64,000 bases of DNA from Streptosporangium brasiliense (GTDB taxonomy: Bacteria; Actinomycetota; Actinomycetes; Streptosporangiales; Streptosporangiaceae): positions 3,596,001-3,660,000 of the forward strand of contig NZ_JAUSRB010000002.1 in assembly GCF_030811595.1 (NCBI RefSeq), written 5' to 3'. The notes under the pieces are model-generated. The model was not told where the DNA came from and did not search any database. It worked only from the letters and a program-made list of their open reading frames with translations. Shown piece by piece: positions 1,534 to 15,860 of this stretch. Within the stretch, counting starts at the first letter, position 1. Each line of letters opens with the position of its first letter. A program made the translations under genes and the position numbers.

Positions 1534-1699
1534 GGGACGCCGCGGGAGCCGCCCTGGAGGGGCCGTGTCCTCCTGGGACGCGCGGGGACCGTTCCGGAGG
1601 TGCTGTGGTGTCAGGGGACGTCGCGGACCCGCCCCGGAGGTGCCGTGTCCTCCCCCCCCGGGACGTGCGGGGACCGCCCCGGAGGTGCTGTGGTGTCAG
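1534..1699. repeat. Four-unit alternating tandem repeat ending inside gntR
   Basis: Four units begin at 1534, 1575, 1615 and 1660 (lengths 41, 40, 45 and 40). All start with GGGACG and share a core close to GGGGACCGCCCCGGAGGTG. Units 1 and 3 end in GTGTCCTCC, units 2 and 4 in CTGTGGTGTCA, giving an A-B-A-B order with an approximately 85-base higher period. The last unit contains the stop codon of the convergent GntR gene. No open frame runs through the array. Confidence 0.8.
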
Positions 1700-2334
1700 G
1701 GGATGCGGGACATCATCCGCTCCATGCCGTTGATCCAGTTGTCCCTGAGGGCCGCCGCCGCGCCCTCCAGGTCGCCGTCGATCAGGCGCTCGGCCACCCG
1801 GCAGTGCTCCTCGGCGGCGCGTTCCATCGGGGTGCTCTCCCCGGTCATCAGGTGGGCGTAGCGGCGCATGCCCGCCTTGACGCTGGTGATCAGGTCGAGT
1901 AGCCGCTCGTTGGCGCAGCCGCTGAGCAGCAGGTCGTGCCATTCGTCGTCGTGGCGCTCGATGTCCTGCCGCTCGGCGACGTCGGCCGAGAAGTCCTGGG
2001 CGAGCGCGAGCAGCTCCGGGGCGATCCTCCTCAGATAAGCCGGGTCCGAGCTCTCCAGGGCGAGCGCCTCCAGGGCCGCCACGATGGCGCACAGCTCACG
2101 GAACTCCTTGCGGCTGACCGGTGCGAACCGGAACCCCCGGCCCTGGTTGCTCTCCAGCACGCCCTCGCCGGCGAGCGTGATCAGTGCCTCGCGCAGCGGG
2201 GTGCGGCTGACCCCCAGCTCACCGGCGAGGGCCGCCTCGTTGATGTCGGTCCCCGCGGCGAAGTCGCCCCGGTCGAGCCGGAGCATGAGCTCCTCGCGGA
2301 TCTGCTCGCGGAGGGGGCGCCGCTCGATCGGCAT
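1696..2334 (-). CDS. GntR family regulator, FadR/VanR (FCD) subfamily
   Basis: A 212-residue repressor-type regulator. Residues about 5-70 form the GntR winged helix (INEAALAGELGVSRTPLREA is the recognition region). About 80-205 is the all-helical FCD ligand domain, with acidic and histidine residues (RHDDEWHDLL and EEHCRVAERL) that usually bind a metal and a carboxylate effector. The start is ATG at 2334 behind AAGGAG. It is divergent from the beta-galactosidase operon, and the 110 bases between them hold a promoter overlapped by symmetric AT-rich sequence. It therefore most likely controls that operon and itself. FCD regulators usually sense organic or sugar acids; the actual ligand is not readable here. 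The 3' end lies within a tandem repeat. Confidence 0.88.
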   Translation of the reverse strand: MPIERRPLREQIREELMLRLDRGDFAAGTDINEAALAGELGVSRTPLREALITLAGEGVLESNQGRGFRFAPVSRKEFRELCAIVAALEALALESSDPAYLRRIAPELLALAQDFSADVAERQDIERHDDEWHDLLLSGCANERLLDLITSVKAGMRRYAHLMTGESTPMERAAEEHCRVAERLIDGDLEGAAAALRDNWINGMERMMSRIP

Positions 2335-2372
2335 GACACTCCTTGGGTTGATCTTGAGCCAAGCGTACCCAC

Positions 2373-2413
2373 TTGACGTGATGCAAAATACTGCACTATG
2401 AATTCTGCATTCA
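2373..2413 (+). promoter_or_regulatory. Putative promoter and GntR operator of the glycosidase/gcv-like operon
   Basis: TTGACG (2373-2378) and TATGAA (2397-2402) are 18 bases apart and resemble a vegetative promoter reading towards the GTG at 2445. Overlapping the -10 box is a perfect inverted repeat, TGAAT-5-ATTCA (2399-2413). In the other strand TATTTTGAATG and TATTTTGCATC are near-direct repeats. This is the most AT-rich point near the operon. The assignment as the operator of the adjacent GntR protein is by position. Confidence 0.5.
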
Positions 2414-2444
2414 AAATATTACATGTCATAGATCGGAGTTACGG

Positions 2445-4442
2445 GTGGGTCTGACCAGGGTTTCCGGTCTGCTGTTCGGCGGTGACTACAACCCCGAGCA
2501 GTGGCCGGAGCACGTCTGGGACGAGGACGCCAGGCTGATGGCCGAGGCCGGGGTGAACATGGCGACCGTCGCGGTCTTCTCCTGGTCCCGCCTCGAACCG
2601 AGCCCCGGGGAGTACGACTTCGGCTGGCTGGACCGGATCCTCGACCTGCTCCACGAGCACGGTGTGGCCGCCGACCTGGCCACCGCCACCGCGACCCCGC
2701 CGCCCTGGCTGGTGCGCGAGCACCCCGAGGTGCTCCCGGTGGACGCGGGAGGCACGCGCCTGGACTTCGGCTCCCGCCAGAGCTACTGCCCCAGCTCGCC
2801 GGTCTTCCGCGAGGCCACGGTACGGCTGGCACGGGCGATGGCCGAGCGCTACGCCGACCACCCGGCGCTGGCCATGTGGCACATCGGCAACGAGTACGCC
2901 GACCACACCCTCGAATGCTTCTGCGAGGAGTCCGCCCGGCACTTCCGGCGCTGGCTCCAGGCGCGGTATGGATCGGTCCAGGGCCTGAACGCCGCCTGGG
3001 GCACCTCCTGCTGGGGCCAGCACTACACCGCGTTCGACCAGGTCAACCCGCCCCGTAAGGCTCCGGGACCGGTCAATCCGGCCCAGGTCCTCGACTGGCG
3101 GCGCTTCTGCTCCGACGCGCTGCTGGAGTGCTTCGAGCTGGAGAAGGCCGTGCTCCGCGAGGTCACCCCGGACATCCCGGTGACCACCAACTTCATGAGC
3201 ATCCTGCACGGCCTGGACTACTGGAAATGGGCCGAGGCCGAGGACATCGTCAGCGACGACGCCTACCCCGACCCCGCCGACCCCGCCTCGCACGTGGCGG
3301 TCGCGCTCAGCTACGACCTGATGCGGTCGCTGAGACGGCAGCCGTGGATCCTGCTGGAGCAGGCGTCGAGCGCGGTGAGCTGGCGCGAGGTCAACGCGCC
3401 CAAGCCGCCGGGCATGATGCGCCTGCACAGCCTCCAGGCCCTGGCCCACGGGGCCGACGGCGCGATGTTCTTCCAGTGGCGGCAGGCCAAGTACGGTCCG
3501 GAGAAGTTCCACTCCGCGCTGCTGCCGCATGGCGGCACCGCCTCGCGCGGCTGGCAGGACACGCTGCGGCTGGGCGCCGACCTCGGACGCCTGGCCGAGA
3601 TCGCCGGGTCGCAGACGCGCGCCGACGTGGCGCTGCTCCTCGACTGGGACAGCTGGTGGGGCCTGGAGGCCCCCGAGTCGATGCCCTCCAACCGGCTCAG
3701 GCTCAAGGAGCTCCTGCAGTCCTGGTACGGGCCGATGCACGCCCGCGGCATCGCGGTCGACCTCGTCCCGATGGGCCGCGACCTGTCCGGCTACCGCGTG
3801 GTGATCGCCCCCAACCTCTACATGTGCACCCCGGAGCAGGCCGAGTGGCTGGCCGCGTTCGGCGGCCACCTCGTCGTCGGCCCGTTCAGCGGCGTCGTCG
3901 ACCCGGCCGACCAGATCCACGACGGCGGCGCCCCCGGCCCGCTGCGGGAGCTGCTCGGCCTGACGGTGGACGAGTTCTGGCCGCTCCCCGACGGACAGCT
4001 CCAGCGGGTGCGGTTCGGGACCGGGGACGGCGGGGCGCCGGCCGTACCGGCACGGACCTGGGCCGAGTGGCTGCGCGTCGAGGACGCCGAGGTGCTCGCC
4101 CGCTACGAGGGCGGCGACCTGGACGGCCAGGCGGCGATCACCAGGCGGGGGCGGGCGACCTACCTGAGCTGCCTGCTCGACGACGTCACCCCGGTCCTGT
4201 CGGAGGTCCTGGCGGCCGCGGGCGTCCAGCCGGTGGCCGAGGTGCCGCACGGCGTGGAGGCCACCCGCCGGGGCCGCTACCTCTTCCTGCTCAACCACTC
4301 GACGGCCCCCGCCCCGGTCGACCTGCGGGAGCCGGGGACCGACCTGCTCACCGGCCGCCACCTGAGCGGCCGGATCGACATCCCGCCCCGCGACGCCGTG
4401 GTGCTGCGCACCGGTGCCGAGCCAACCGAAGGAGAACGGTGA
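2445..4442 (+). CDS. Glycoside hydrolase family 42 beta-galactosidase
   Basis: A 665-residue cytoplasmic enzyme (no signal peptide) expected to release terminal beta-linked galactose or a related sugar from imported oligosaccharides. The TIM-barrel domain (about 1-380) opens with FGGDYNPEQWP and contains the acid/base glutamate E150 in WHIGNEY and the probable nucleophile E305 in LLEQASSAVSW. It is followed by the family motif ADGAMFFQWRQAKYG. The second domain (about 390-600) is the Rossmann-like trimerisation domain, then a small beta domain. Four-cysteine zinc sites seen in some GH42 enzymes look incomplete. GTG at 2445 is chosen because GGAG lies eight bases upstream. It is first in a nine-gene operon and overlaps the next gene by four bases. 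The substrate could be another beta-linked sugar such as arabinopyranose. Confidence 0.93.
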   Translation: MGLTRVSGLLFGGDYNPEQWPEHVWDEDARLMAEAGVNMATVAVFSWSRLEPSPGEYDFGWLDRILDLLHEHGVAADLATATATPPPWLVREHPEVLPVDAGGTRLDFGSRQSYCPSSPVFREATVRLARAMAERYADHPALAMWHIGNEYADHTLECFCEESARHFRRWLQARYGSVQGLNAAWGTSCWGQHYTAFDQVNPPRKAPGPVNPAQVLDWRRFCSDALLECFELEKAVLREVTPDIPVTTNFMSILHGLDYWKWAEAEDIVSDDAYPDPADPASHVAVALSYDLMRSLRRQPWILLEQASSAVSWREVNAPKPPGMMRLHSLQALAHGADGAMFFQWRQAKYGPEKFHSALLPHGGTASRGWQDTLRLGADLGRLAEIAGSQTRADVALLLDWDSWWGLEAPESMPSNRLRLKELLQSWYGPMHARGIAVDLVPMGRDLSGYRVVIAPNLYMCTPEQAEWLAAFGGHLVVGPFSGVVDPADQIHDGGAPGPLRELLGLTVDEFWPLPDGQLQRVRFGTGDGGAPAVPARTWAEWLRVEDAEVLARYEGGDLDGQAAITRRGRATYLSCLLDDVTPVLSEVLAAAGVQPVAEVPHGVEATRRGRYLFLLNHSTAPAPVDLREPGTDLLTGRHLSGRIDIPPRDAVVLRTGAEPTEGER

Positions 4443-5770
4443 CACACCCCTACATCCCGAACGCCGAACCAGGCGTGCGGGCCGAGATGCTCGCCGCCAT
4501 CGGCGCCGCGAGCGTCGAGGACCTCTACGCGGTCATCCCGGCCGGCCTCCGCCTCGACCGGCCGCTGGACCTGCCCGAGCCGATGGCCTCCGAGCACGAG
4601 CTGGTCGCGCACATGCGCGGGCTGCTGGCGCGCAACACCGACACCACCGAGGTGCTCAGCTTCCTCGGCCACGGCTGCTACCCGCACCACGTCCCGGCCG
4701 TCTGCGACGAGGTCAACGGGCGCGGCGAGTTCCTCACCGCCTACGCGGGCGAGCCGTATGAGGACCACGGCCGCTTCCAGGCCATGTTCGAGTACGTCAG
4801 CATGATGGCCGAGCTGCTGGAGATGGACGTCGTCAACGTCCCGACCTACGACGGCTACCAGGCGGCCGGGACCGCCATCAGGATGGCGGTCCGCTACACC
4901 GGCCGCTCCAAGGTGCTGCTCAGCGGGGCCGTCAGCGCCGACAAGATGAGCAAGCTGCGCGACTTCCTCGACCACGACGTCGAGCTCGTCATCGCCCCGG
5001 TCGGGGCGGGCGGCGAGATCGGTGACGTGGAGATCGACGAGACCTTCGCCGCGATCTACCTGGAGACCCCGAACGTCTACGGCGTCGTGGAGACGCGGGG
5101 CCGCGAGCTCGCCGACCTCGCGCACGGCGTCGGCGCGCTCCTGGTCGTCTCGGCCGACCCGATCTCGCTGGGCGTGCTCGCCCCGCCCGCCGCCTACGGC
5201 GCGGACATCGCCTGCGGGGACATCCAGTCGCTCGGCATGCACCAGAGCTACGGCGGCGGCCACGCCGGATACATCGCCACCCGCGACGAGGAGCGCCTGG
5301 TCGCCGAGATCCCCTCGCGGCTGTTCGGCATCGCGCCCACCGCGGTGCCCGGCGAGTACGGCTTCGGCGACGTCTTCTACGACCGGACCTCCTTCGCCCA
5401 CCGCGAGGAGGGCAAGGAATGGGTGGGCACCGCGGCCGCCCTGTGGGGCATCACCGCCGGGGTCTACCTCGCGCTGATGGGGCCCGAGGGCATGCGCGAG
5501 CTCGGCGAGACGGTCCTGGCTCGCACCCGCTACGCGATGGACCGCGTCGCGGACGCCGGAGCCCGGGTGCTCCACCCCGACGCCGTCCACTTCCGCGAGT
5601 TCGCGATCGAGGTGCCCTCCTCCGACGGGCTCCTGGCCGCGCTGCGCGAGCGCGGCATCTTCGGCGGCGTCCGGCTGGACGACCGCACGCTGCTGGTCTG
5701 CGTGACCGAGCGGCACTCCAAGGACGACATCGACCGGCTGGCGGCAGCCGTACAGGAGGAACTGGCGTGA
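4439..5770 (+). CDS. Divergent GcvPA-like PLP-fold protein (glycine dehydrogenase subunit 1 family)
   Basis: A 443-residue protein of the glycine decarboxylase P-protein subunit 1 family. In the true enzyme this partner of the PLP-binding subunit decarboxylates glycine and passes the aminomethyl group to lipoylated GcvH. Family features are visible: FLGHGCYPHHVP, EFLTAYAGEP, FQAMFEYVSMMAELLEMDVVN and YDGYQAAGTAI. However FLGAGAYDHYIP and the late REQHIRREKATSNICT region of classical subunits are changed or absent; the late position reads HREEGKEWVGTAAALWG. No active-site lysine is expected in this subunit. The start is GTG 4439, overlapping the upstream stop, behind AAGGAGAAC. It sits in a sugar operon, and no gcvH, gcvT or lpd is near. 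Membership in the family is clear; use of glycine as substrate is doubtful. Confidence 0.8.
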   Translation: MTHPYIPNAEPGVRAEMLAAIGAASVEDLYAVIPAGLRLDRPLDLPEPMASEHELVAHMRGLLARNTDTTEVLSFLGHGCYPHHVPAVCDEVNGRGEFLTAYAGEPYEDHGRFQAMFEYVSMMAELLEMDVVNVPTYDGYQAAGTAIRMAVRYTGRSKVLLSGAVSADKMSKLRDFLDHDVELVIAPVGAGGEIGDVEIDETFAAIYLETPNVYGVVETRGRELADLAHGVGALLVVSADPISLGVLAPPAAYGADIACGDIQSLGMHQSYGGGHAGYIATRDEERLVAEIPSRLFGIAPTAVPGEYGFGDVFYDRTSFAHREEGKEWVGTAAALWGITAGVYLALMGPEGMRELGETVLARTRYAMDRVADAGARVLHPDAVHFREFAIEVPSSDGLLAALRERGIFGGVRLDDRTLLVCVTERHSKDDIDRLAAAVQEELA

Positions 5771-7326
5771 GCGGGCACGCGGGAGAGTCGTTCGCGGAGC
5801 TGCCGGTGGCGCCCAAGCCGCCGCTGCGCCGCTTCCACCAGGCTCGCTGGGACGAGCCGATCATCTTCGAGCAGTCGCGTCCCGGCCGCCGGGGCATCGC
5901 CGTACCGGCCGCGGGGGTGCCCGCGGTGGAGCTGCCCGCCTCGGTACGGCGGGCCGAGCCGCCCAAGCTGCCCGAGATGTCGCAGCTGCACGTGCTGCGG
6001 CACTACGTCCGGCTGTCGCAGGAGAACCTGGGCGTCGACCAGGCCATCGCGGTCGGCCAGGGCACCTGCACCATGAAGTACAGCCCCAAGGTCAACGACC
6101 GCTTCGTCAACGACCCCAAGGTGGCCGAGCTCCACCCGCTCCAGCCCGACGACACCGTGCAGGGCGTCCTGGAGGTCTACTGGCGGCTGGAGAAGATCCT
6201 GGCCGAGATCTCCGGGATGCACCGAGTCTCGCTCCAGCCCGCCTCCGGGTCGGCGGCGATCTACGCCAACATCGCGATGATCCGCGCCTACCACGCCTCG
6301 CGCGGCGAGGGGCGGCAGCGGGACCAGGTCATCACCACGATGTTCTCCCACCCGTCCAACGCGGCCTGCGCCAAGACCGCCGGGTACGAGGTCATCACGT
6401 TGATGCCCGACGAGAACGGCTACCCCGACATCGAGGCCCTGCGCGCCGCCGTCGGCCCGCGCACCGCGGCCCTGATGATCACCAATCCCGAGGACACGGG
6501 CATCTTCAACCCGCGCATCGAGGAGTTCGTCTCCCTGGTGCACGGGGCCGGCGGCCTGGCCTGCTACGACCAGGCCAACGCCAACGGCATCCTGGGCATC
6601 ACCCGCGCCGCCGACGCCGGGTTCGACCTGTGCCACTTCAACCTGCACAAGACCTTCTCCACCCCGCACGCGTGCGGCGGTCCGGCGGGCGGGGCGAGCG
6701 GCGTCTCCGAGCGGCTCGCGCCGTTCCTGCCCGGCCCGACCGTGGAGTTCGACGGGTCGAGGTATCACCTCGACGCCGACCGCCCGCAGTCGGTCGGCAA
6801 GATGCGCCCCTTCCTCGGCGTCACCCCGAACGTGGTCCGCGCCTACGCCTGGGTCATGGCGCTGGGAGCCGAGGGCCTGCGCGAGGTCGCCGAGACCGCG
6901 GTGCTCAACAACAACTACCTGATGCACAAGATCCTGAGCATCCCCGGCGCCTCGGCGCCCTGGGGCGAGAAGCGCCTGGAGCAGGTCCGCTACTCCTGGC
7001 AGGGGCTGTTCGAGGAGACGGGCGTGCACTCGGAGGAGATCGGCGTCCGCGCCGCGGACTTCGGCGTGCACTACTGGACCAGCCACCACCCCTACCTGGT
7101 CCCCGAGCCCTTCACCCTGGAGCCGACGGAGTCGTACTCCAAGGAGGACCTCGACGAGTACGCCGCGATCCTCGCCCACGTCGCCGACGAGGCCCGCCGC
7201 GACCCCGAGCACGTCAAGGGAGCCCCCTACAACCAGACGGTCCACAAGATCGATCAGACGTCACTGGACGACCCCAAGCAGTGGTCGCCCACCTGGCGCG
7301 CCTACACCCGTAAGCACCTGGCATGA
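5767..7326 (+). CDS. Divergent GcvPB-like PLP enzyme (glycine dehydrogenase subunit 2 family)
   Basis: A 519-residue PLP enzyme subunit that should pair with the preceding protein. Conserved family marks are IIFEQSRPGRRG near the N-terminus, GQGTCTMKYSPKVN, HPLQPDDTVQGVLEV, LMITNPEDTG, and FNLHKTFSTPHACGGP with the PLP lysine at K295. In classical subunits the region after LQPA reads GAHGE; here it is SGSAAIYANIAMIRAYH, so a substrate-facing loop differs. The N-terminal tail of about 25 residues is longer than usual. The start GTG 5767 overlaps the upstream TGA with GAGGA in front; it also overlaps the next gene by four bases, so translation is probably coupled. The likely reaction is decarboxylation or cleavage of an amino acid, but the acceptor is unknown because GcvH is not encoded nearby. 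Confidence 0.82.
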   Translation: MSGHAGESFAELPVAPKPPLRRFHQARWDEPIIFEQSRPGRRGIAVPAAGVPAVELPASVRRAEPPKLPEMSQLHVLRHYVRLSQENLGVDQAIAVGQGTCTMKYSPKVNDRFVNDPKVAELHPLQPDDTVQGVLEVYWRLEKILAEISGMHRVSLQPASGSAAIYANIAMIRAYHASRGEGRQRDQVITTMFSHPSNAACAKTAGYEVITLMPDENGYPDIEALRAAVGPRTAALMITNPEDTGIFNPRIEEFVSLVHGAGGLACYDQANANGILGITRAADAGFDLCHFNLHKTFSTPHACGGPAGGASGVSERLAPFLPGPTVEFDGSRYHLDADRPQSVGKMRPFLGVTPNVVRAYAWVMALGAEGLREVAETAVLNNNYLMHKILSIPGASAPWGEKRLEQVRYSWQGLFEETGVHSEEIGVRAADFGVHYWTSHHPYLVPEPFTLEPTESYSKEDLDEYAAILAHVADEARRDPEHVKGAPYNQTVHKIDQTSLDDPKQWSPTWRAYTRKHLA

Positions 7327-8552
7327 CCGCTGACCGGCCGATGTCCCCCGACGCGTCCCGGGCCCTCCCGGGACCGGCGGCCTCCGCCCCGTCTCCCGCC
7401 GCCCCGGCGGCGCCCGTGCCCACGGGCGGAGAGGTCCTCACGGTCGGGCTGATCGTCAACCCGGTCGCGGGGATCGGCGGACCGGCCGGTCTCAAGGGCA
7501 GCGACGGTGCCGACGTCCAGCGGGAGGCGCTGGCCCGGGGGTCCCGCCCCGGGGCCGGCGACCGCGCGGCGCAGGCCGTGCGGACCCTGCTGGCCCGGCG
7601 TCCCGGCACGCGGATCCGCACCGTCGCGGGGTCGATGGGCGAGGACAGCGCGCGGGCGGCCGGGGCGGTCCCGGAGCTGCTGCGGCTCGTCCCCGGCGAC
7701 CCGTCGTCCTCGCGGGACACGGTGGCGGCCGTCGAGGCCATGAAGGACATCGACCTGCTGCTGTTCGCCGGAGGCGACGGCACCGCCAGGGACGTGCTCG
7801 ACGGCTCGCCGTCCTGCCCGGTGCTCGGCGTCCCGGCGGGGGTGAAGGTCTACTCCGGCTGCTTCGCGCTCAGCCCCGCCACGGCGGGGGCGACGGCCGC
7901 CGAGTTCGACGGGCGGACGGCCGAGGCCGAGGTGGTTGACCTCGACGAGGAGACCTACCGGCGGGGCCGGGTCGGTCCCCGGCTCTACGGCACCCTGCGT
8001 GTGCCCGCCGCCAGGGCGCGGTTGTCGGGCCGCAAGGTCGGGTCGTCCTCGGCCGCCCCCGGGTCGGCCGAGAGCATCGCCCGGGAGGTCGTGGCCCGGA
8101 TGCGGCCCGGCGTCCGCTACGTCCTCGGCCCCGGCGCCACCACCATGGCCGTCGGCCGCCGGCTCGGCCTGGCCACCACGCTGCTCGGCGTGGACGTGGT
8201 CCAGGACGGCGAGCTGGTCGCCGCCGACGTGACCGAGCGGGAGCTTCTCGACCTCGCCGGCGGGGGCGAGACCCACGCCGTCGTCTCGGTGATCGGGGGC
8301 CAGGGGTTCGTGCTCGGCCGGGGCAACCAGCAGATCAGCCCCGCCGTACTGAAAAAGATCATGGCCTCCGGAGGGCTGACCGTCCTGGCCACCCAGCAGA
8401 AGCTCGCCGGCCTCGGCGGGCGCCCGCTGCTGGCCGACACCGGAGACCCGGAGGCGGACGCCCTGGTCGGCGGCCACGTCTCCGTCATCACCGGATATCG
8501 CGAGAGCGCGATGTACCGGATCCGTTCCGCGACTGAGGAGTTCCCGGCATGA
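7323..8552 (+). CDS. AcoX-like ATP-NAD kinase family protein
   Basis: A 409-residue protein of the ATP-NAD kinase superfamily, AcoX-type branch. Diagnostic motifs are LIVNPVAGIGGPAGLKGSDG near residue 40, the nucleotide-binding FAGGDGTARDV with GGDG at residues 150-153, and GVPAGVKVYSGCFALSP. The first 35 residues are Pro/Ala-rich low complexity, so translation could instead begin further in. The ATG at 7323 is kept because it overlaps the upstream stop as ATGA. AcoX proteins accompany acetoin dehydrogenase genes without a settled function, and the superfamily includes NAD kinases and lipid or sugar kinases. In this operon it may phosphorylate a small metabolite or supply NADP to the following dehydrogenase; both are inference. 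The end overlaps the SDR gene by four bases. Confidence 0.8.
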   Translation: MTADRPMSPDASRALPGPAASAPSPAAPAAPVPTGGEVLTVGLIVNPVAGIGGPAGLKGSDGADVQREALARGSRPGAGDRAAQAVRTLLARRPGTRIRTVAGSMGEDSARAAGAVPELLRLVPGDPSSSRDTVAAVEAMKDIDLLLFAGGDGTARDVLDGSPSCPVLGVPAGVKVYSGCFALSPATAGATAAEFDGRTAEAEVVDLDEETYRRGRVGPRLYGTLRVPAARARLSGRKVGSSSAAPGSAESIAREVVARMRPGVRYVLGPGATTMAVGRRLGLATTLLGVDVVQDGELVAADVTERELLDLAGGGETHAVVSVIGGQGFVLGRGNQQISPAVLKKIMASGGLTVLATQQKLAGLGGRPLLADTGDPEADALVGGHVSVITGYRESAMYRIRSATEEFPA

Positions 8553-9304
8553 CCACCCTGACTGACAAGGTCGCCATCGTCACCGGCGGTGCCTCCGGCA
8601 TCGGCCGGGCCACCGCGCTGCTGTTCGCCCGCCAGGGCGCGGCCGTCGTGGTCGCCGACCTCGACGGCCCCGGTGCCGCGGAGGTGGCCGGGGAGATCGA
8701 GGCCGAGGGCGGCAGGGCCGTGCCGGTCACGGCGGACGTGGCCGCTGAGGAGGACTGCGCGCGCGCCGTGCGGACCGCGGTGGAGACCTTCGGCGGCCTG
8801 CACGTGCTGTTCAACAACGCCGGGATCATCCGCCGGACCACCGCCCTGGACATCACGGCCGACGAGTGGGACCGGGTCATGGCGGTCAACGTCCGCTCGG
8901 TCTTCCTCATGTGCAAGCACGCGATCCCCGCCATGAAGGACGGCGGCTCGATCGTGAACACCGGCTCCGGCTGGGGCCTCAAGGGCGGCGGCAACGCCAT
9001 CTCCTACTGCGCCTCCAAGGCCGCCGTGGTCAACATGACCCGCGCCCTGGCCATCGACCACGCCAAGGCCGGCATCCGCGTCAACTCGGTCAACCCCGGC
9101 GACACCGACACCCCGATGCTCCGCGAGGAGGCCCGCCAGCTCTCGGAGGACTGGGCCGCCTTCGCCGCCGACGCCGCCGACCGCCCGATGGGCCGCGCGG
9201 GCAGTCCCGACGAGATCGCCCAGGCCGTCCTCTTCCTGGCGAGTGACGCCGCCAGCTACGTCACCGGCGCGGCCCTGGTCGTCGACGGTGGCGGACTCGC
9301 CTAA
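8549..9304 (+). CDS. Short-chain dehydrogenase/reductase
   Basis: A 251-residue classical SDR. The cofactor motif TGGASGIG is at residues 12-19, followed by an acidic residue after the second strand (VVADLDG), which suggests NAD rather than NADP. NNAG, the catalytic serine of NTGSGWGLKG and the YCASK tetrad segment follow, and the C-terminus ends in the usual YVTGAALVVDGG. All catalytic residues are present. It would oxidise or reduce a hydroxyl or keto group of a sugar, polyol or hydroxy acid. The start ATG at 8549 overlaps the kinase stop. Because it is translationally coupled to the kinase and the GcvP-like pair, it probably acts in the same pathway on the product or precursor of the PLP step. 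Confidence 0.9.
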   Translation: MTTLTDKVAIVTGGASGIGRATALLFARQGAAVVVADLDGPGAAEVAGEIEAEGGRAVPVTADVAAEEDCARAVRTAVETFGGLHVLFNNAGIIRRTTALDITADEWDRVMAVNVRSVFLMCKHAIPAMKDGGSIVNTGSGWGLKGGGNAISYCASKAAVVNMTRALAIDHAKAGIRVNSVNPGDTDTPMLREEARQLSEDWAAFAADAADRPMGRAGSPDEIAQAVLFLASDAASYVTGAALVVDGGGLA

Positions 9305-9341
9305 CCCACCCCCCGAAAACCCCACCCCCAGGAGGCACACC

Positions 9342-10649
9342 GTGTCTTTCCCCATCTCCAAGAAAGCCCTGGCCGCAGCGGCCTTGGCCCTGACCGCCAC
9401 TGTCACCGCCGCCTGCAGCGGGAGCGGCGGCGGCGCGGCCACCGGCGGCCCGGCCGCCGGCGGGAAGGTCACCATCCGGTGGTCGACCTGGGGCTCGGCC
9501 GAGGACGTCGCGCTCTACAAGGGCTTCAACGACGACTTCATGAAGCGCCACCCGAACATCGTGCTGAAGATGGAGACGGTCCCCAAGTACGAGGACTACC
9601 ACCCCAAGCTCCTGACCCAGCTCACCTCCAAGACCGCGCCCGACGTCTTCTTCGTCGGTGACGACAACGTCGGAAAGTTCGTCGCCGCCGGGGTGCTCGC
9701 CCCGCTCAACGACAAGCTCGCCGGCGCGGACAGCAAGAGCAAGCCCGAGGACTTCTTCGACGGCGTCTACGGCGGGGCCAAGAAGGACGGCCAGATCTAC
9801 GGCGTCCCGAACGACACCAACCCCGAGGTGCTCTGGTACGGCAAGAAGGCGCTCAAGGAGGCCGGGATCACCGAGGACCCGGCCGAGCTGAACGCGGCCG
9901 GCAAGTGGACCATGGCCAAATACCTCGAGATGAACGCCAAGCTCAAGGCGGCGGGCAAGGCCGGCTCGATCTTCTGGAACTGGTACGGCTCGACCTACAG
10001 CGTCATCAGCGGTTTCGGCGGCAAGGTCTGGGACGGCGGCAAGTTCGTCGCCACCACCGACCCCAAGTCGCGCGAGGCCCTGCAGACCCTGGCCAAGGGC
10101 TACGCCGACAAGACCTTCCTGTCGGCCGACGTGCTGCCCGCCAGCAACGGCGCCAACACCCAGTTCATCCGGAGCAAGGCCGGGTTCTTCGCCGGCGGCC
10201 GGTGGATGATCGACGTGGTCAAGAAGGGCGGCGACCTGCCCAACTACGACATCGTGCCGTTCCCGTCGGAGACCGGCCAGCCGATGTCCGGCGCGGTCGC
10301 GGCCTCCTACCTGGCGCTCAACAAGGACTCCAAGAACGCCAAGGAGGCCTTCACCTTCCTGACCGAGTTCGTCAGCAAGGAGGGCCAGCTCCTGCGCCTC
10401 AAGAACGGCGGCGCGGTCCCCTCGATCAAGGGAGCCGAGCAGGTCGTGCTGGAGGGCGGCTACCCCGCGCACGCCCAGACCTTCCTGGACGTCCGTGACA
10501 CCGGCTTCGCCAACTACTCCGACGAGGTCGCGGTGCCCGGCCTCACCAAGGACATCAACGACCACCTGCTGAAGGTCTGGACCGGCAAGGTCGCCTTCGA
10601 GCAGGGGATGACCGAGCTCCAGTCCCTCGTCGACGGCAAGATCGGATAG
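9342..10649 (+). CDS. Sugar ABC transporter substrate-binding lipoprotein
   Basis: A 435-residue extracellular solute-binding protein of family 1. A signal peptide with lipobox TAAC places the lipid anchor near residue 25, followed by a Gly/Ser-rich linker. The mature protein starts with VTIRWSTWGSAEDVALYKGF and carries the family segment KTAPDVFFVGDDNVGKF, aromatic sugar-stacking residues (FWNWYGSTY) and the hinge region GGRWMIDVVKKGG. It should capture an oligosaccharide and hand it to the two permeases downstream. GTG at 9342 is the start because GGAGG stands at 9331-9335. No ATPase gene is in the operon, so a shared MsiK-type ATPase encoded elsewhere is likely, as known in actinomycetes. 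Confidence 0.93.
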   Translation: MSFPISKKALAAAALALTATVTAACSGSGGGAATGGPAAGGKVTIRWSTWGSAEDVALYKGFNDDFMKRHPNIVLKMETVPKYEDYHPKLLTQLTSKTAPDVFFVGDDNVGKFVAAGVLAPLNDKLAGADSKSKPEDFFDGVYGGAKKDGQIYGVPNDTNPEVLWYGKKALKEAGITEDPAELNAAGKWTMAKYLEMNAKLKAAGKAGSIFWNWYGSTYSVISGFGGKVWDGGKFVATTDPKSREALQTLAKGYADKTFLSADVLPASNGANTQFIRSKAGFFAGGRWMIDVVKKGGDLPNYDIVPFPSETGQPMSGAVAASYLALNKDSKNAKEAFTFLTEFVSKEGQLLRLKNGGAVPSIKGAEQVVLEGGYPAHAQTFLDVRDTGFANYSDEVAVPGLTKDINDHLLKVWTGKVAFEQGMTELQSLVDGKIG

Positions 10650-10654
10650 CGGCT

Positions 10655-11593
10655 GTGGGCGCCGTCACCTCGGCGCGCCCTGCCGCGAAACCCCGGCCCG
10701 CGCGCGCGACGACGCGCGTGCGGAGCCGGGACGGCTGGTGGGCCGCGCTCTTCCTCGCCCCGCAGGTCCTCGGCCTGCTCGCCTTCCTGGTCCTCCCGCT
10801 CGGGTTCGCGATCGCGCTCGCGTTCATGAAGTGGGACGGGCTCGGCGAGATGTCCTGGGTCGGCTTCGACAACTTCGCCGCCCAGCTCTCCGACCCCGAC
10901 TTCGGCACGGCCGTCTGGAACACCGTCAAGCTCGCCGTCCTGACCGTCCCGGTGGGCCTGGCGCTCGCGCTGCTCGTCGCGATCGCGCTGAACAACGTCA
11001 GGGGCAAGACCTTCTACCGGGTCGTCTACTTCCTGCCGGTGGTCACCAGCTCGGTCGCGGTGGCCGTGATGTGGCAGGTCATCCTGGCCAGCGGCGACTA
11101 CGGCGTGCTCAACAGCACCGTCCACGACTGGTTCGGGATCACCTTGCCCAACTGGCTGGACGACCCGGGCTGGGTCATCGTGGCCATCGCGGTCGTGACC
11201 GTCTGGTCCTCGCTCGGCCTCAACGTCGTGATCTTCCTGGCCGGGCTGCAGACCATCCCGCCGTCGCTGACGGAGGCCGCCCGCATCGACGGTGCCGGCC
11301 CGGTCCGGATCTTCCGGTCGGTGACGCTGCCGATGATCTCCCCGACCATCTTCTTCTCCACCGTGGTCGCGGTGATCAGCTCCTTCCAGGCGTTCGACCA
11401 GATCTACGTGCTGGTCAACCCCGACCACAACGACGGCGCCCGCACGATCGTCTACCAGGTCTACGACCTGGGCTTCAAGGACTTCGAGTTCGGCATGAGC
11501 AGCGCCGCCGCGCTGATCCTGCTGGCGCTGACGCTGCTCGTCACCCTCGTCCAGTTCGGAGTGCAGAAGCGCTTCGTCCACTACGACTCCTAA
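10655..11593 (+). CDS. Sugar ABC transporter permease, MalF type
   Basis: A 312-residue integral membrane protein with six predicted transmembrane segments, the first at about residues 30-52 and the last near 280-300. The ATPase-contacting EAA loop is visible as LTEAARIDGAGPVRIFRSVTLPMISP. The N-terminus is Arg/Ala-rich and cytoplasmic. It begins with GTG five bases after the binding-protein stop, which indicates co-translation, and is followed within 12 bases by the second permease. Together they form the channel of a carbohydrate importer of the CUT1 class, which takes di- and oligosaccharides. Confidence 0.92.
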   Translation: MGAVTSARPAAKPRPARATTRVRSRDGWWAALFLAPQVLGLLAFLVLPLGFAIALAFMKWDGLGEMSWVGFDNFAAQLSDPDFGTAVWNTVKLAVLTVPVGLALALLVAIALNNVRGKTFYRVVYFLPVVTSSVAVAVMWQVILASGDYGVLNSTVHDWFGITLPNWLDDPGWVIVAIAVVTVWSSLGLNVVIFLAGLQTIPPSLTEAARIDGAGPVRIFRSVTLPMISPTIFFSTVVAVISSFQAFDQIYVLVNPDHNDGARTIVYQVYDLGFKDFEFGMSSAAALILLALTLLVTLVQFGVQKRFVHYDS

Positions 11594-11605
11594 GGGGAGG
11601 CGTCG

Positions 11606-12466
11606 ATGGCTGTGATCCCCGGACCCTCCCGCGTCCCCGTCCCTCGCCGGCTGGGCCAGGTCGCCCTGCACGCCGCGCTCGCCGCCGGCGGGCTGGTGAT
11701 GCTGTTCCCGTTCGTCTGGATGCTGCTGACGTCGTTCAAGGGCGCGCACCAGATGATCAATTCGCCGCTCGACTGGCTGCCCGCCCCCTGGCGGGCGCAG
11801 AACTATCCCGACGCGTTCGGCGCGCTGCCCTTCGCCCAGGCCTACTGGAACAGCTTCTACATCGCGGTCGTCAACGTGGTCCTCACCCTGGTCACCTCCG
11901 CGATGGCCGCCTACGCCTTCGCCAGGATCCGCTTCCGCGGCTCCGGCCTGCTGTTCGGCCTGTTCCTGGCGACCCAGATGGTGCCGCAGCAGGTGATCAT
12001 CGTCCCGCTCTACCTGATGCTGTCGAAGCTGGGCTGGATCGACTCCCACCTGGCGCTGATCGTGCCCGGCTTCGTCAATCCCTTCGCGGTCTTCCTGCTG
12101 CGGCAGTTCATCCGGGCGGTCCCGATCGAGCTGGAGGAGGCCGCCCGCCTCGACGGTGCCGGCCGCTGGACGATCTTCTGGCGGGTCGTGCTGCCCAACG
12201 TCAGGCCCGGCATGGGCGCGCTCGGCATCATCGTCTTCCTGGCGAGCTGGAACAGCTTCTTCTTCCCGCTGATCTTCCTGAACTCGCCTGAGCTGGCCAC
12301 CGTGCCGCTGCTGGTCAGCCAGTTCGCCGGGCAGCACGGCGCCACCGACTACAACCTCATCCTCGCCGCCTCGGCCATCTCGGTCATCCCGATGATGATC
12401 GCCTTCCTGATCGGCCAGCGGCGCATCCTCAACAGCATGGCCATGTCCGGCCTGGGAGGACGCTGA
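11606..12466 (+). CDS. Sugar ABC transporter permease, MalG type
   Basis: A 286-residue membrane protein with about six transmembrane helices. It contains the EAA motif ELEEAARLDGAGRWTIFWRVVLP and the family start WMLLTSFKGAHQM. The ATG at 11606 has AAGGGGAGG upstream. It is the second half of the CUT1 importer channel. It ends two bases before the glycosidase gene, so uptake and hydrolysis are on one transcript. Confidence 0.92.
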   Translation: MAVIPGPSRVPVPRRLGQVALHAALAAGGLVMLFPFVWMLLTSFKGAHQMINSPLDWLPAPWRAQNYPDAFGALPFAQAYWNSFYIAVVNVVLTLVTSAMAAYAFARIRFRGSGLLFGLFLATQMVPQQVIIVPLYLMLSKLGWIDSHLALIVPGFVNPFAVFLLRQFIRAVPIELEEAARLDGAGRWTIFWRVVLPNVRPGMGALGIIVFLASWNSFFFPLIFLNSPELATVPLLVSQFAGQHGATDYNLILAASAISVIPMMIAFLIGQRRILNSMAMSGLGGR

Positions 12467-12468
12467 CA

Positions 12469-14262
12469 ATGCTCGACCTTCGCGAGCGGCCCTTCACCGA
12501 GCGCGGCTCCCGGCTGCTGGTGATGGCCGCCGATGACGGCTCGCTCTGGATCGCCCGCGCCGAGTACGAGACACGGCTGTCGGAGACGACCGTGCTCACC
12601 GGTCTGCGGGTGTTCTCCGGCGGTGCGGAGCTGCCCGTACGGCAGGCGCGCGCCGACCGCATCTCCTTCGAGGGAGGCGTGGACCTGGTCTTCGCCGACG
12701 CCGAGACGCTGGTGCTGACCGGTTCGGGGGCCCGCGCGGTCTGGGACGGCGGCGCGGTGGAGATCGACGGAGCCCGCGTGCTGGTGGGGGAGGCGCGCCC
12801 GTACGACGGCGCCGCCCTGCTGGAGAGCGCCGCGCGTCGCTGGCGGGAGTGGTCCGGCCGGATGCCGGCCGTGCCGGAGGGGCTGCGGGAGCGGGCCGAG
12901 CAGGCGTGGTGGACGCTCGGCGTGAACCTGCTGCCCATCGGCTCCGCGGGCGGCCGGGAGGGCGTTGTCCCATCCAAGTACGGATATGTCGGCATCTGGA
13001 ACTGGGACTCCTACTTCCACGCCGTCGCCCTGCGCCACGCCGATCCCGAGCTGGCCCGTGACCAGATCCGCATCCTGCTCGACCACCAGCGTCCCGACGG
13101 CCTCATCCCCGACGTGGTCCACGACCTGGGCGTGCTCGCCGAGACCACCGACCTGCCCCGCTCCGACCACATCCGCCTGGCCCAGCACGTCGGCCAGGCG
13201 GGCGGGGAGGGCTCCGACGGGGCCGGAGATCCCGCTCGGCCGGCCGACGGAGCCGAGCCGGCCGACGGGGCACGGGGGGAGGAGCCGGAGCGTCCGGAAG
13301 GGGCCGCCGAGCCGATCGGCGGCGTCGTCCCGGTCACCAAGCCCCCGCTGACGGCCTGGGCCGTCTGGAAGATCCACGAGGTGGCCCCGGACCTGGACTT
13401 CCTCGCCGAGGTCTACGGGCCGATCGCCCGCTCGCACGAGTGGTGGCTGACCGTCTCCGACCCCGACGGCGACGGGCTGGCCGAATATCTCCATCCCTAC
13501 TCGTCAGGTCTGGACGACAGCCCGATCTGGGACCACGGTCCCCGGGCCGAACCCCCGGACCTCAACTCCTACCTGGCCCTGCAGGCCGACCGGCTGGGCG
13601 ACATCGCCGAGGCGCTGGGCCGTACCGGGGAGGCGCGGCTCTGGCGGGAGCGGGCGGCCGAGCACGTCGAGCTGCTGGTGGCCAGGCGCTGGAACGGCAG
13701 CCGCTTCGTGACCCTGTCGAAGGCGGCCCGCCGTACGGCGGCGCCGTCAGCGGAGGTCGCCGCGGAGGCGGGGACCCCGGAGAGGTCCGGCGGACAGGTC
13801 CGCGCGCCGGGGAACGCCGCCGGTGACGCCGGGGCGGCGGGGGCACGGGCGGGCGAGGTGGAGGTGGCCACCCGGACCCCGCTGGAGCTGATGCCGCTGT
13901 TCACCGGCCGCCTCCCCGAGGAGATCGCCGGGCGGCTGGTGGCCGACCTGCTCTCCCCGGCTTTCTGGGCCGAGCGCCCGGTGCCCACGGTCGCCTTCGA
14001 CGACCCGGCCTTCGACCCCGACGCCATGTGGCGCGGCCCGGTCTGGCTCAACGTCAACTACCTGTTGATCGAGGGTCTGCGCCGCTCGGGCCACGCCGAG
14101 GTCGCCGACGAGCTGACCAGGCGGACCCTGGAGATGGTGAACGCCGGTGGCGGCCTGTACGAATACTGGAACCCGCTCACCGGCGCCCGCGCGGCCCGCG
14201 CGACCAGCGGCTTCGGCTGGTCCTCCGCCCTCTTCCTCGACCTGGCCGCCGCTCAGGCGTGA
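12469..14262 (+). CDS. GH63/MGH-like (alpha/alpha)6-barrel glycosidase
   Basis: A 597-residue intracellular glycosidase. An N-terminal beta region (about 1-120) precedes a catalytic (alpha/alpha)6 barrel with motifs of the GH63/GH37-like group: GIWNWDSYF, SGLDDSPIWDHG (candidate acid D349 or D350), MWRGPVWLNVNYLLIEGL and LYEYWNPLTG with candidate base E565. These enzymes cut alpha-glucosidic or related linkages by inversion. Two low-complexity Gly/Ala/Glu/Pro insertions, at about 244-282 and 424-465, are not typical and probably form surface loops. It ends the operon. The last 33 bases, including the stop codon, are repeated exactly at 14851-14883 beyond a toxin-antitoxin cassette. Exact substrate is unknown. 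Confidence 0.85.
   Translation: MLDLRERPFTERGSRLLVMAADDGSLWIARAEYETRLSETTVLTGLRVFSGGAELPVRQARADRISFEGGVDLVFADAETLVLTGSGARAVWDGGAVEIDGARVLVGEARPYDGAALLESAARRWREWSGRMPAVPEGLRERAEQAWWTLGVNLLPIGSAGGREGVVPSKYGYVGIWNWDSYFHAVALRHADPELARDQIRILLDHQRPDGLIPDVVHDLGVLAETTDLPRSDHIRLAQHVGQAGGEGSDGAGDPARPADGAEPADGARGEEPERPEGAAEPIGGVVPVTKPPLTAWAVWKIHEVAPDLDFLAEVYGPIARSHEWWLTVSDPDGDGLAEYLHPYSSGLDDSPIWDHGPRAEPPDLNSYLALQADRLGDIAEALGRTGEARLWRERAAEHVELLVARRWNGSRFVTLSKAARRTAAPSAEVAAEAGTPERSGGQVRAPGNAAGDAGAAGARAGEVEVATRTPLELMPLFTGRLPEEIAGRLVADLLSPAFWAERPVPTVAFDDPAFDPDAMWRGPVWLNVNYLLIEGLRRSGHAEVADELTRRTLEMVNAGGGLYEYWNPLTGARAARATSGFGWSSALFLDLAAAQA
14230..14262 (+). repeat. 33-bp direct repeat, left copy (end of the glycosidase gene)
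   Basis: This exact 33-base sequence, starting CTCTTCCTCGACCTGG and ending with the stop codon TGA, recurs at 14851-14883. The distance between copies is 621 bases, and the toxin-antitoxin cassette lies between them. The repeat reads as the C-terminus LFLDLAAAQA of the glycosidase. Confidence 0.97.
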
Positions 14263-14850: not shown

Positions 14851-14883
14851 CTCTTCCTCGACCTGGCCGCCGCTCAGGCGTGA
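14851..14883 (+). repeat. 33-bp direct repeat, right copy (overlaps the pirin stop)
   Basis: Identical to 14230-14262. Its last ten bases also encode the end of the convergent pirin gene, whose stop codon is at 14874-14876. Removing one repeat plus the DNA between the copies would leave the glycosidase and pirin genes convergent and overlapping at their 3' ends, with both reading frames intact. Confidence 0.97.
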
Positions 14884-15860
14884 GCGGCGGGGATGGTGCC
14901 CAGGCGGCCGGCCTGGTAGTCCTCGAAGGCCTTGACCAGCTCCTCCTGGGTGTTCATCACGAACGGGCCGTAGTGCGCGACCGGCTCGCCGATCGGGCGG
15001 CCGCCCAGCACGATGACCTCCAGGTTGGGGCTGCGGCTCTCCTGGGTCGCCGACGCCGAGACGGTGATGGTCTCACCGTCGGTGCCGAGGCCCGGCAGGG
15101 TGCCGAAGCCGTCGAAGACCGCCAGCTGGCCCGACTCGATGGGCTGCCGGTCGGCGCCGACCGAGCCCCGTCCGGACAGGACGTAGGCGAGGGCGTTGAA
15201 GTCCTTGCGCCAGGGCAGCGTGAGGCGGGAGCCGGGGCTGAGGGAGGCGTGCAGCAGGGTGATCGGCGTCCTGGTGCTGCCGGGGCCGGTGAAGCCGCCG
15301 ACCTCGCCGGCGATCAGGCGGACCAGCGCCCCGCCGTCGTGGCTGCTGAGCAGGACGACGTTGGACCTGCCGATGTCCTGATAGTTGGGCGCGACCATCT
15401 TCTGGCTGCCCGGCAGGTTGACCCAGAGCTGGATGCCGTGGAACAGGCCGCCCTTGGCGACCAGCCACTCCGGGGGAGCCTCCTTGTGCAGGATGCCCCC
15501 GCCGGCGGTCATCCACTGCGTGTCGCCGTCGGAGATCGTGCCGCCGCCGCCATGGGAGTCGGCGTGGTCCATCACGCCGTCGATCATGTAGGTGACGGTC
15601 TCGAAGCCCCGGTGCGGGTGCCAGGGAGTGCCCTTGGGCTCGCCCGGCGCGTACTCCACCTCGCCCATCTGGTCCATCATGATGAACGGGTCGAGATACT
15701 GGGGCTTGATCGTCGCCAGCGCCTTGCGCACCGGGAAGCCCTCGCCCTCGAATCCGCTGGGCGCGGTGGTCACGGCCAGCACCTCGCGCTCGCGCACGGC
15801 GTCGAGCGGCTGGGTCAGCCGGGGCAGGGTCAACGGGTTCTCTACGGTCACGGCGGGCAT
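14874..15860 (-). CDS. Pirin family protein (cupin, possible quercetinase)
   Basis: A 328-residue bicupin. The N-terminal cupin holds the metal-site motif HPHRGFETVTYMIDG, a second histidine in GVMDHADSHGG and the glutamate of AGGGILHKEAPPEW, which together bind Fe or a similar metal. The C-terminal cupin (about 190-300) carries TLLHASLSPGSRLTLP and YVLSGRGSVG. Some pirins have quercetin 2,3-dioxygenase activity, others act as redox co-regulators; sequence alone does not decide. The start ATG at 15860 is preceded by AAGGAG. The upstream region holds overlapping MarR-type dyads (15892-15914), so control by a MarR protein is likely. The stop lies in the right copy of the 33-bp repeat. Confidence 0.9.
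   Translation of the reverse strand: MPAVTVENPLTLPRLTQPLDAVREREVLAVTTAPSGFEGEGFPVRKALATIKPQYLDPFIMMDQMGEVEYAPGEPKGTPWHPHRGFETVTYMIDGVMDHADSHGGGGTISDGDTQWMTAGGGILHKEAPPEWLVAKGGLFHGIQLWVNLPGSQKMVAPNYQDIGRSNVVLLSSHDGGALVRLIAGEVGGFTGPGSTRTPITLLHASLSPGSRLTLPWRKDFNALAYVLSGRGSVGADRQPIESGQLAVFDGFGTLPGLGTDGETITVSASATQESRSPNLEVIVLGGRPIGEPVAHYGPFVMNTQEELVKAFEDYQAGRLGTIPAAHA

What the first reader, a model, noticed from the sequence alone, without database searches (positions are those of the whole stretch)
2445..14262. Sugar-uptake operon with a GcvP-like pair, an AcoX-like kinase and an SDR: possible undescribed catabolic pathway
Sequence: GH42, GcvPA-like, GcvPB-like, AcoX-like kinase, SDR, CUT1 importer and GH63-like genes run in one direction, the first five joined by ATGA/GTGA overlaps. 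Known: glycine decarboxylase needs GcvH, GcvT and Lpd, none of which is here, and AcoX has no settled function. Inference: an imported glycoside is split by two hydrolases, and a released amino- or hydroxy-compound is processed by kinase, dehydrogenase and a PLP lyase that is not a normal glycine decarboxylase.
Basis: partly seen in the sequence, partly recalled or inferred. Interest (0 to 1): 0.85.

Follow-up and report, generated by a model that had tools for sequence, protein, structure and literature searches.

The report
GcvP-like enzyme in galactoside-uptake operon
Soil bacteria carry a relative of glycine decarboxylase that seems to have become a different enzyme, usually travels with a kinase and often a dehydrogenase, and in two distant bacterial groups sits among sugar-import and galactosidase genes, so it may belong to an undescribed route for breaking down sugar-linked amino compounds.

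Summary
In detail: ten genes at 1696-14262, the first five of the + strand run joined by 4-base overlaps. The GcvPA/GcvPB pair is not the housekeeping P-protein; the genome has a separate single-chain GcvP and a GcvH. It belongs to a deep clade (49 rows against 17 canonical, support 100/100) with intact PLP residues but fixed changes elsewhere (T100, D243, R408, H440, T450 in 60 of 60 clade rows, 0 of 17 canonical). In 299 Bacillota genomes the clade co-occurs with the AcoX-like gene (both 20, pair only 3, AcoX only 2, neither 274). Of 20 genomes with the triad, 5 lack canonical GcvP, and these same 5 lack a full GcvH, so the pair may work without H-protein. The glycoside link recurs: the ten-gene order holds in 9 of 9 other actinobacterial loci, and in one Bacillota family (6 of 6 loci) a beta-galactosidase of another family, GH2, sits beside a similar SDR and the pair, with CUT1 permeases in 5 and an MGH1-like hydrolase in 3, without AcoX in those stretches. 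Best reading: an imported galactosyl conjugate is trimmed, and the freed hydroxy-amino aglycone is oxidised by the SDR and cleaved by the PLP pair. Substrate and reaction are inferred, not shown.

The parts
1696..2334 (-). GntR/FCD-family transcription regulator, divergent from the operon
   Evidence: PF00392 and PF07729 over cut-off; present next to the operon in 9 of 9 actinobacterial loci
2335..2444 (.). 110-bp divergent intergenic region with -35-like TTGACG, -10-like TATGAA and a conserved TATGAATTCTGCATACAAAA-type stretch (likely operator; window differs at one base)
   Evidence: comparison of 10 intergenic regions; promoter and operator reading by eye
2445..4442 (+). GH42 beta-galactosidase
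   Evidence: PF02449 501 bits; beta-galactosidases in PDB down to 9e-178
4439..5770 (+). GcvPA-like subunit of the PLP heterodimer (divergent clade)
   Evidence: PF02347 208.8 bits; NCBIfam PRK00451 455.5 bits over cut-off 364; marker residues
5767..7326 (+). GcvPB-like catalytic PLP subunit (divergent clade; Lys295, His195, Asp268 kept)
   Evidence: NCBIfam PRK04366 601 bits over cut-off 441; 1wyt_B 7e-100; tree
7323..8552 (+). AcoX-like protein of the NAD-kinase fold (GGDGT motif), probable kinase
   Evidence: PF01513 and PF20143 over cut-off; GGDGTARD invariant in 9 rows
8549..9304 (+). short-chain dehydrogenase, probably NAD-dependent
   Evidence: PF13561/PF00106; nearer relatives beside the pair 51-68% identical
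9342..10649 (+). CUT1-type solute-binding protein
   Evidence: PF01547 119.6 bits; nearest solved structures include oligosaccharide binders
10655..11593 (+). ABC sugar permease 1
   Evidence: PF00528
11606..12466 (+). ABC sugar permease 2
   Evidence: PF00528
12469..14262 (+). MGH1-like / GH63-type glycoside hydrolase
   Evidence: PF22422 255.9 bits, PF03200 41.9 bits over cut-off; TTHA0978, YgjK and a mycobacterial hydrolase in PDB

Best explanation
The operon imports and dismantles a glycoconjugate whose sugar part holds a beta-galactosyl and an alpha-linked (perhaps glucosyl) residue and whose aglycone is a hydroxy-amino compound. The CUT1 importer brings it in, the MGH1/GH63-type hydrolase removes the alpha-linked sugar and GH42 the galactose. 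The SDR oxidises a hydroxyl of the freed aglycone with NAD+. The GcvPA/GcvPB-like heterodimer binds the product as a PLP aldimine and breaks a bond at the amino-bearing carbon (decarboxylation or C-C cleavage) without needing lipoyl GcvH. The AcoX-like kinase phosphorylates a small hydroxylated intermediate so that it enters central metabolism. SHOWN by sequence: gene content, order, conservation, the separate clade, kept PLP residues, fixed changes around them, co-occurrence, recurrence with a beta-galactosidase of another family. INFERRED: H-protein independence (from gene absence in 5 genomes), the order of steps, the substrate, the reaction, the coenzyme and the kinase's substrate.
For: Separate housekeeping GcvP and GcvH in the genome. 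Clade of 49 linked GcvPB rows against 17 canonical, 100/100. Marker residues: T100, D243, R408, H440, T450 in 60 of 60 linked, 0 of 17 canonical; GcvPA G274 and G330 in 58 of 58 against 0 of 17; PLP residues K295, D268, H195 in all 77 GcvPB rows. Score gap: linked GcvPB at least 815 bits (24 places in 23 genomes), next best at most 529. Co-occurrence with AcoX in the same 299 genomes: 20/3/2/274, Fisher p 6e-26, relatedness not corrected. Plasmids asked with GcvPB: 8 of 8 records at 45% identity or more also hold AcoX, 0 of 11 records at 38-42% do. Of 20 triad genomes, the 15 with canonical GcvPA all have full GcvH and a GcvT-family match; the 5 without it have no full GcvH, and one of the 5 has a partial GcvT match. 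Full operon in 9 of 9 actinobacterial loci. GH2-SDR-GcvPA-GcvPB in 6 of 6 loci of G134's family, CUT1 permeases in 5, MGH1-like hydrolase in 3.
Against: No biochemistry. In Bacillota other than G134's family, Alphaproteobacteria and Rhodococcus the core was seen without these glycosidases, so the glycoside is not its general substrate. The pair lies within 10 kb of the canonical glycine cleavage genes in 5 of the 15 genomes that have both, and near lipoate-ligase and Lpd genes (named by eye) in 4 loci, which could mean a link to glycine or lipoate. AcoX is missing from the stretches of the 6 genomes of G134's family and from 3 of 23 Bacillota genomes with the pair; AcoX also occurs without the pair (36 of 38 Pseudomonadota genomes, 5 of 13 plasmid records); an SDR within 8 kb was found in 34 of 54 linked loci. 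So no fixed set of three enzymes exists. Of the GcvH-less genomes two are metagenome bins and none has a told completeness. Both subunits pass NCBI's GcvPA/GcvPB cut-offs.
Confidence: 0.5

Rival explanations
1. It is a second glycine decarboxylase P-protein (isoform) that uses the genome's GcvH, GcvT and Lpd in trans to burn glycine released from imported glycopeptides or betaines.
For: Both subunits pass NCBI's GcvPA and GcvPB equivalog cut-offs; PLP residues kept; within 10 kb of canonical gcv genes in 5 of 15 genomes and near Lpd/LplA genes (named by eye) in 4 loci.
Against: 5 of 20 triad genomes have no full GcvH and no canonical GcvP yet keep the pair; clade-wide fixed changes in both subunits, including the GcvPA stretch that by my reading carries human Tyr161/Tyr164, marked as active site in PMC7259800 tables; long branch to canonical proteins.
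Confidence: 0.15
2. The aglycone is glycerate or glycerol: the MGH1-like enzyme is a glucosyl/mannosylglycerate-type hydrolase and AcoX-like is the glycerate (or other hydroxy-acid) kinase; the PLP pair serves a side step such as serine metabolism.
For: Best solved relatives of the last gene include TTHA0978 (a mannosylglycerate hydrolase according to PMC7263609, passages) and a mycobacterial hydrolase (glucosylglycerate hydrolase according to the same passages); NAD-kinase-type fold of AcoX.
Against: Below NCBI's cut-off for glucosylglycerate hydrolase (93 of 550 bits); no AcoX in the stretches of G134's family, three of which keep an MGH1-like enzyme with SDR and PLP pair; gives the PLP enzyme no central role.
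Confidence: 0.1
3. AcoX-like protein is a plain NAD kinase that feeds NADP to the SDR; it says nothing about the substrate.
For: PF01513/PF20143 matches and GGDGT motif.
Against: Relatives turn up beside small-molecule enzymes: a CobD/HisC-like PLP enzyme (L087, L175), DeoC- and nucleoside-phosphorylase-like genes (L069, by eye), aldolase-like genes (L026, by eye), PdxB-like genes (L150 419 bits, cut-off 434; others by clustering with it or by eye). The SDR has an acidic residue at the end of beta2 (ADLDG), which by the usual rule (recalled) points to NAD.
Confidence: 0.12
4. The glycosidases and importer merely share a promoter with an unrelated amino-acid module; there is no metabolic link.
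For: Most homologues of the core are not near glycosidases.
Against: A similar set (beta-galactosidase, CUT1 permeases, SDR, GcvPA, GcvPB, in part MGH1-like hydrolase) recurs in a Bacillota family with a GH2 in place of a GH42 enzyme.
Confidence: 0.1

Closest known systems
Glycine decarboxylase P-protein, two-subunit form (GcvPA/GcvPB; Thermus thermophilus 1WYT)
   Same: Fold family, two-subunit make-up, PLP lysine in NLHKT, stacking histidine, Asp to PLP N1 (roles recalled); the window's subunits are about 31% and 33% identical to the two halves of the genome's own GcvP
   Different: Own clade; fixed substitutions in both subunits; found without full GcvH in 5 of 20 triad genomes; usual partner is the AcoX-like gene, often an SDR
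AcoX of acetoin operons / NAD kinase family
   Same: NAD-kinase-type domains, GGDGT
Kinase + PLP-enzyme pairs (L-threonine kinase/CobD; hydroxylysine kinase/5-phosphohydroxylysine lyase), recalled
   Same: A small-molecule kinase gene next to a PLP enzyme; in L087 and L175 an AcoX-like gene is directly followed by a CobD/HisC-like or class I/II aminotransferase gene
   Different: Other folds on both sides; kinase missing beside the pair in G134's family; analogy only
GH63 group: YgjK alpha-glucosidase, mannosyl/glucosylglycerate hydrolases
   Same: PF22422/PF03200 matches; sequence relatives in PDB
   Different: Below the curated cut-offs for YgjK-type and glucosylglycerate hydrolase; substrate unknown
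GH42 and GH2 beta-galactosidases with CUT1 importers
   Same: Ordinary members by sequence
   Different: In one gene run with an SDR and a PLP pair

Membership tests
Glycine decarboxylase (GcvP) | PLP lysine and cofactor-binding His/Asp | tested here: met
   K295, H195, D268 in all 77 GcvPB rows
Glycine decarboxylase (GcvP) | Curated sequence cut-offs (NCBIfam GcvPA, GcvPB) | tested here: met
   455.5 over 364 and 601.2 over 441 bits
Glycine decarboxylase (GcvP) | Residues invariant in the 17 canonical P-proteins compared | tested here: not met
   PB S100, G196, T243, G269 and PA Y99, P104, S109, P274, C330 are kept by none of the 60 (PB) or 58 (PA) linked rows
Glycine decarboxylase (GcvP) | Presence of its partner, lipoyl GcvH, in the genome | tested here: inconclusive
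   15 of 20 triad genomes have full GcvH (those with canonical GcvP), 5 of 20 do not; completeness of the 5 not told; the window's genome has GcvH
Glycine decarboxylase (GcvP) | Glycine decarboxylation activity | not testable with these tools
   needs enzyme assay
AcoX / NAD kinase superfamily | NAD-kinase domains and GGDGT | tested here: met
AcoX of acetoin operons | Sits with acetoin dehydrogenase genes | tested here: not met
   none among the ten genes
GH42 | GH42 catalytic, trimerisation and C-terminal domains | tested here: met
   PF02449, PF08532, PF08533 over cut-off
GH63 / MGH1-like hydrolases | Family profile over cut-off | tested here: met
   PF22422 255.9 bits, PF03200 41.9 bits
Glucosylglycerate hydrolase or YgjK-type alpha-glucosidase | Curated equivalog cut-off | tested here: not met
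   93.1 of 550 and 114.2 of 625 bits
CUT1 importer | SBP plus two permeases; ATPase may be shared from elsewhere (recalled) | tested here: met
   PF01547 and two PF00528; no ATPase gene among the ten

The most novel reading that the evidence does not exclude
The clade is a new PLP enzyme that uses the P-protein scaffold without H-protein to cleave a hydroxy- or keto-amino compound, and the window's operon is a route for glycosylated hydroxy-amino acids; the collagen unit Glc-alpha-1,2-Gal-beta-O-hydroxylysine would fit the two hydrolases exactly (alpha-glucosidase, then beta-galactosidase, then an amino alcohol).
Probability: 0.2. Interest if true: 0.85.

Novelty: new variant of a known kind. 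Interest (0 to 1): 0.66.

Why it matters
In the annotated plasmid records looked at, these proteins are named glycine dehydrogenase subunits GcvPA/GcvPB, so a separate clade found in four bacterial phyla and a haloarchaeon is counted as glycine cleavage. If it works without H-protein, genome-based claims of glycine cleavage need correcting, and the P-protein scaffold has a second chemistry. The recurrence with beta-galactosidases of two families gives a handle on the substrate, and the frequent partnership with AcoX makes the old question of AcoX function testable.

Tried and rejected
Housekeeping GcvP: rejected, the genome has another. Chance neighbourhood: rejected by conservation in 9 actinobacterial loci and by co-occurrence across phyla. 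'AcoX is always part of it': rejected, 3 of 23 Bacillota genomes with the pair have no AcoX match at E 1e-20 and none is found by tblastn (E 1e-5) in the stretches of 6 genomes of G134's family (genome-wide only G134 was searched for AcoX). 'The pathway is always a sugar pathway': rejected by amino-acid, peptide, TRAP and tricarboxylate-type transporters near other copies (some named by eye). AcoX fold search: model pTM 0.53, no match at E 0.001 or better; top rows are weak and mixed, with diacylglycerol-kinase and putative kinase entries among them, of no use for the substrate. No PDB sequence relative of AcoX at E 0.01. SDR family scans give no specific activity. Pseudomonadota AcoX genes sit mostly elsewhere: 36 of 38 without GcvPB beside them, 23 of these seen with about 1.5-kb flanks only, several near PdxB-like genes; taken as a different branch, no AcoX tree was built. 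Literature searches for the combination (one search listed 20 of 33 papers, 20 of 100, 15 of 21) and for hydroxylysine glycosides in bacteria (15 of 27 listed; one search gave generic hits only) showed no title or abstract start that describes it; the library lacks most subscription journals. The Thermacetogenium phaeum paper (PMC12674515, passages) describes a GCS operon without mention of a NAD kinase.


Full report
What is there. The run at 2445-14262 holds, all on the + strand, GH42, GcvPA-like, GcvPB-like, AcoX-like, SDR, a CUT1 binding protein, two permeases and an MGH1-like/GH63 hydrolase, with a divergent GntR/FCD regulator at 1696-2334. Four 4-base overlaps join the first five genes. 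The genome has 10.49 Mb in 5 contigs. The AcoX-like gene is found in it and in 7 of 15 other genomes of its genus, and in none of the other 44 of the 60 genomes searched (E 1e-15). Named loci of the same kind are Streptosporangium species; that this is the window's genus is an inference from matching contig coordinates.

Conservation of the operon. brought 15 loci. In the 9 actinobacterial ones (6 Streptosporangium, Planomonospora, Catelliglobosispora, Sphaerisporangium) all ten genes occur in the same order, with about 61-96% identity to the window's proteins. The regulator-GH42 intergenic stretch shares a TATGAATT-TG-AT-CAAAA-type element in all 10 sequences compared, over a -10-like hexamer (by eye).

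The pair is not the housekeeping P-protein. The genome has a single-chain GcvP (open frame 979 aa) elsewhere, scoring 589 bits against PF02347 where the window's GcvPA scores 208, and a GcvH. I then took 20 genomes in which I had seen the linked pair with AcoX (19 of them Bacillota-type, one Chloroflexota; none actinobacterial). Canonical GcvPA scores 433-487 bits there and linked GcvPA 159-217 bits, with nothing in between. Fifteen of the 20 have canonical GcvPA, and all 15 have a full GcvH and a GcvT-family match. The other 5 (G064, G067, G092, G135, G352) have no canonical GcvPA and no full GcvH (G135 has a 24-bit partial match); G064 has a partial GcvT match, the other 4 none. G064 and G067 are metagenome bins by their record titles and no completeness is told for any of the 5, so this is good but not final evidence that the linked pair does without H-protein.

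Clade and residues. The tree of 66 GcvPB sequences splits 49 linked from 17 canonical (from 16 genomes) with full support and a long branch. Rows were found mostly through AcoX, so the label is partly circular; two searches that started from GcvPB answer this. In 299 genomes of one Bacillota phylum the linked profile gave 24 places at 815 bits or more in 23 genomes, and nothing between that and 529 bits. The same genomes had AcoX in 22: both 20, pair only 3, AcoX only 2, neither 274, Fisher p 6e-26 without correction for relatedness; both searches score only the first few candidates per genome. In plasmids, 8 records with GcvPB at 45% identity or more all hold AcoX, adjacent in 7 (in Natronosalvus 54 kb away), while 11 records at 38-42% hold none; conversely 5 of the 13 AcoX records have no such GcvPB. 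Across 60 linked and 17 canonical GcvPB sequences the PLP lysine, His195 and Asp268 are invariant, but Thr100, Asp243, Arg408, His440 and Thr450 are in 60 of 60 linked and 0 of 17 canonical; Arg403 in 59 of 60 against 0. In GcvPA Gly274 and Gly330 are 58 of 58 against 0 of 17. The linked rows include the window's operon and 9 close copies of it. The canonical TPYQPE-SQG stretch of GcvPA, which by my reading of the alignment holds human Tyr161 and Tyr164 (marked 'active site' in tables of PMC7259800, passages), is rewritten to AG-EPYEDHG. The catalytic machinery is thus kept and the surroundings changed; two new conserved arginines suggest a larger, negatively charged substrate (inference).

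Spread and partners. In one search, 17 of 20 Bacillota AcoX loci fetched have GcvPA and GcvPB beside AcoX (not L069, L076, L087; L087 is a second copy in a genome whose other copy is linked). In Chloroflexota 10 of 400 genomes have AcoX and 8 of these show GcvPB beside it; of the other two, G755 is cut by a contig end and G733 has a partial AcoX without GcvPB in the 8 kb fetched. In Actinomycetota 3 of 396, the window's genome included, have AcoX, all three with GcvPB beside it or next but one. In Pseudomonadota 38 of 398 have AcoX but only 2 with the pair. Over 54 linked loci, within 8 kb, AcoX is in 48, SDR in 34, APC permease in 13, CUT1 permease in 13, TIGR01440/DUF436 in 8, M20 peptidase in 5, Opp-type ABC in 4, lipoate-ligase-like and Lpd-like genes in 4 (queries partly named by eye; 9 are copies of the actinobacterial operon; after removing 8 near-copies, 46 loci give AcoX 40, SDR 26). 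The SDRs next to the pair in the nearer branch (L023, L073, L075, L136, L137, L178, L186, L187) are 51-68% identical to the window's; others near the pair are lower, down to about 30%.

The glycoside link. Among the three Bacillota genomes with the pair but no AcoX, G134 carried a telling cluster: MGH1-like hydrolase (31% identical to the window's over 308 aligned residues, E 7e-37), two-component regulator (by eye), CUT1 binding protein and permeases, a GH2 beta-galactosidase, the SDR (54%), GcvPA and GcvPB. In its family 6 of 74 genomes have the pair. In 6 of 6 the order GH2-SDR-GcvPA-GcvPB is kept, CUT1 permeases are present in 5 and the MGH1-like hydrolase in 3; tblastn finds no AcoX and no GH42 in these stretches. 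GH2 and GH42 are different families of one clan (recalled), so the function 'beta-galactosidase' was recruited twice or swapped. This is the strongest evidence that the sugar genes and the PLP pair belong to one pathway.

How it most likely works. Import, removal of an alpha-linked sugar, removal of galactose, oxidation of a hydroxyl of the aglycone (the SDR carries an acidic residue after beta2, which by the usual rule points to NAD), then PLP-dependent bond breaking by the pair; AcoX, where present, phosphorylates a small hydroxylated intermediate. Established P-protein chemistry makes an aminomethyl-PLP carbanion from glycine; the same intermediate could come from a 2-amino ketone or amino alcohol by C-C cleavage (inference). 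A natural substrate that would need exactly these glycosidases is the collagen unit Glc-alpha-1,2-Gal-beta-O-hydroxylysine (its structure as given in PMC8626586, passages); that YgjK-type GH63 enzymes accept Glc-alpha-1,2-Gal is recalled, from no call. M20 peptidases, peptide transporters and gcv genes near other copies would fit amino acids from peptides, but none of this names the substrate. Glycosylated serine, threonine or hydroxyproline, or a galactosyl-glycerate type compound, are not excluded.

Verdict.

Noticed in passing
L087:7668-9727; L175:9992-12068 (Peptoclostridium acidaminophilum plasmid): An AcoX-like gene is directly followed by a CobD/HisC-like PLP enzyme (L087: hisC 219 bits and CobD 151 bits, both below cut-off; L175: class I/II aminotransferase by its record), which hints that the kinase family can act on hydroxy-amino acids such as L-threonine.
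   Followed up: partly
L144, L146, L147, L148, L150 (Pseudomonadota): AcoX-like genes lie near PdxB-like genes (HMM only for L150: 419 bits, just under the cut-off of 434; the others by clustering with it). AcoX of this branch may have a role near vitamin B6.
   Followed up: partly
L068, L070, L074, L079: In these Bacillota loci the triad is followed by an APC permease, TIGR01440/DUF436 and PdxS, with an MFS permease in three of the four (PdxS and TIGR01440 HMM-checked in L068 only).
   Followed up: partly
L085:8998-14721: Beside the triad lie what by eye look like a corrinoid protein, a UroD-type methyltransferase and an MttB-family protein, as in methylated-amine use.
   Followed up: no
window 15995-17371 (-) and 20202-21800 (+): By eye a serine beta-lactamase-like protein and a penicillin-binding-protein-like transpeptidase a few kb apart; no family search was run on them.
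   Followed up: no
window 14874-15860 (-): By eye a pirin-family protein just downstream of the operon.
   Followed up: no
L014, L015, L019, L020, upstream of the regulator: A second set of ABC sugar permease genes lies about 1.4-2 kb beyond the regulator gene in these four relatives.
   Followed up: no
G092: contigs C87 and C117/C50 (L075, L189, L191): One genome without GcvH or canonical GcvP carries two linked GcvPB copies, one without AcoX beside it but with an M20 peptidase (L189).
   Followed up: partly
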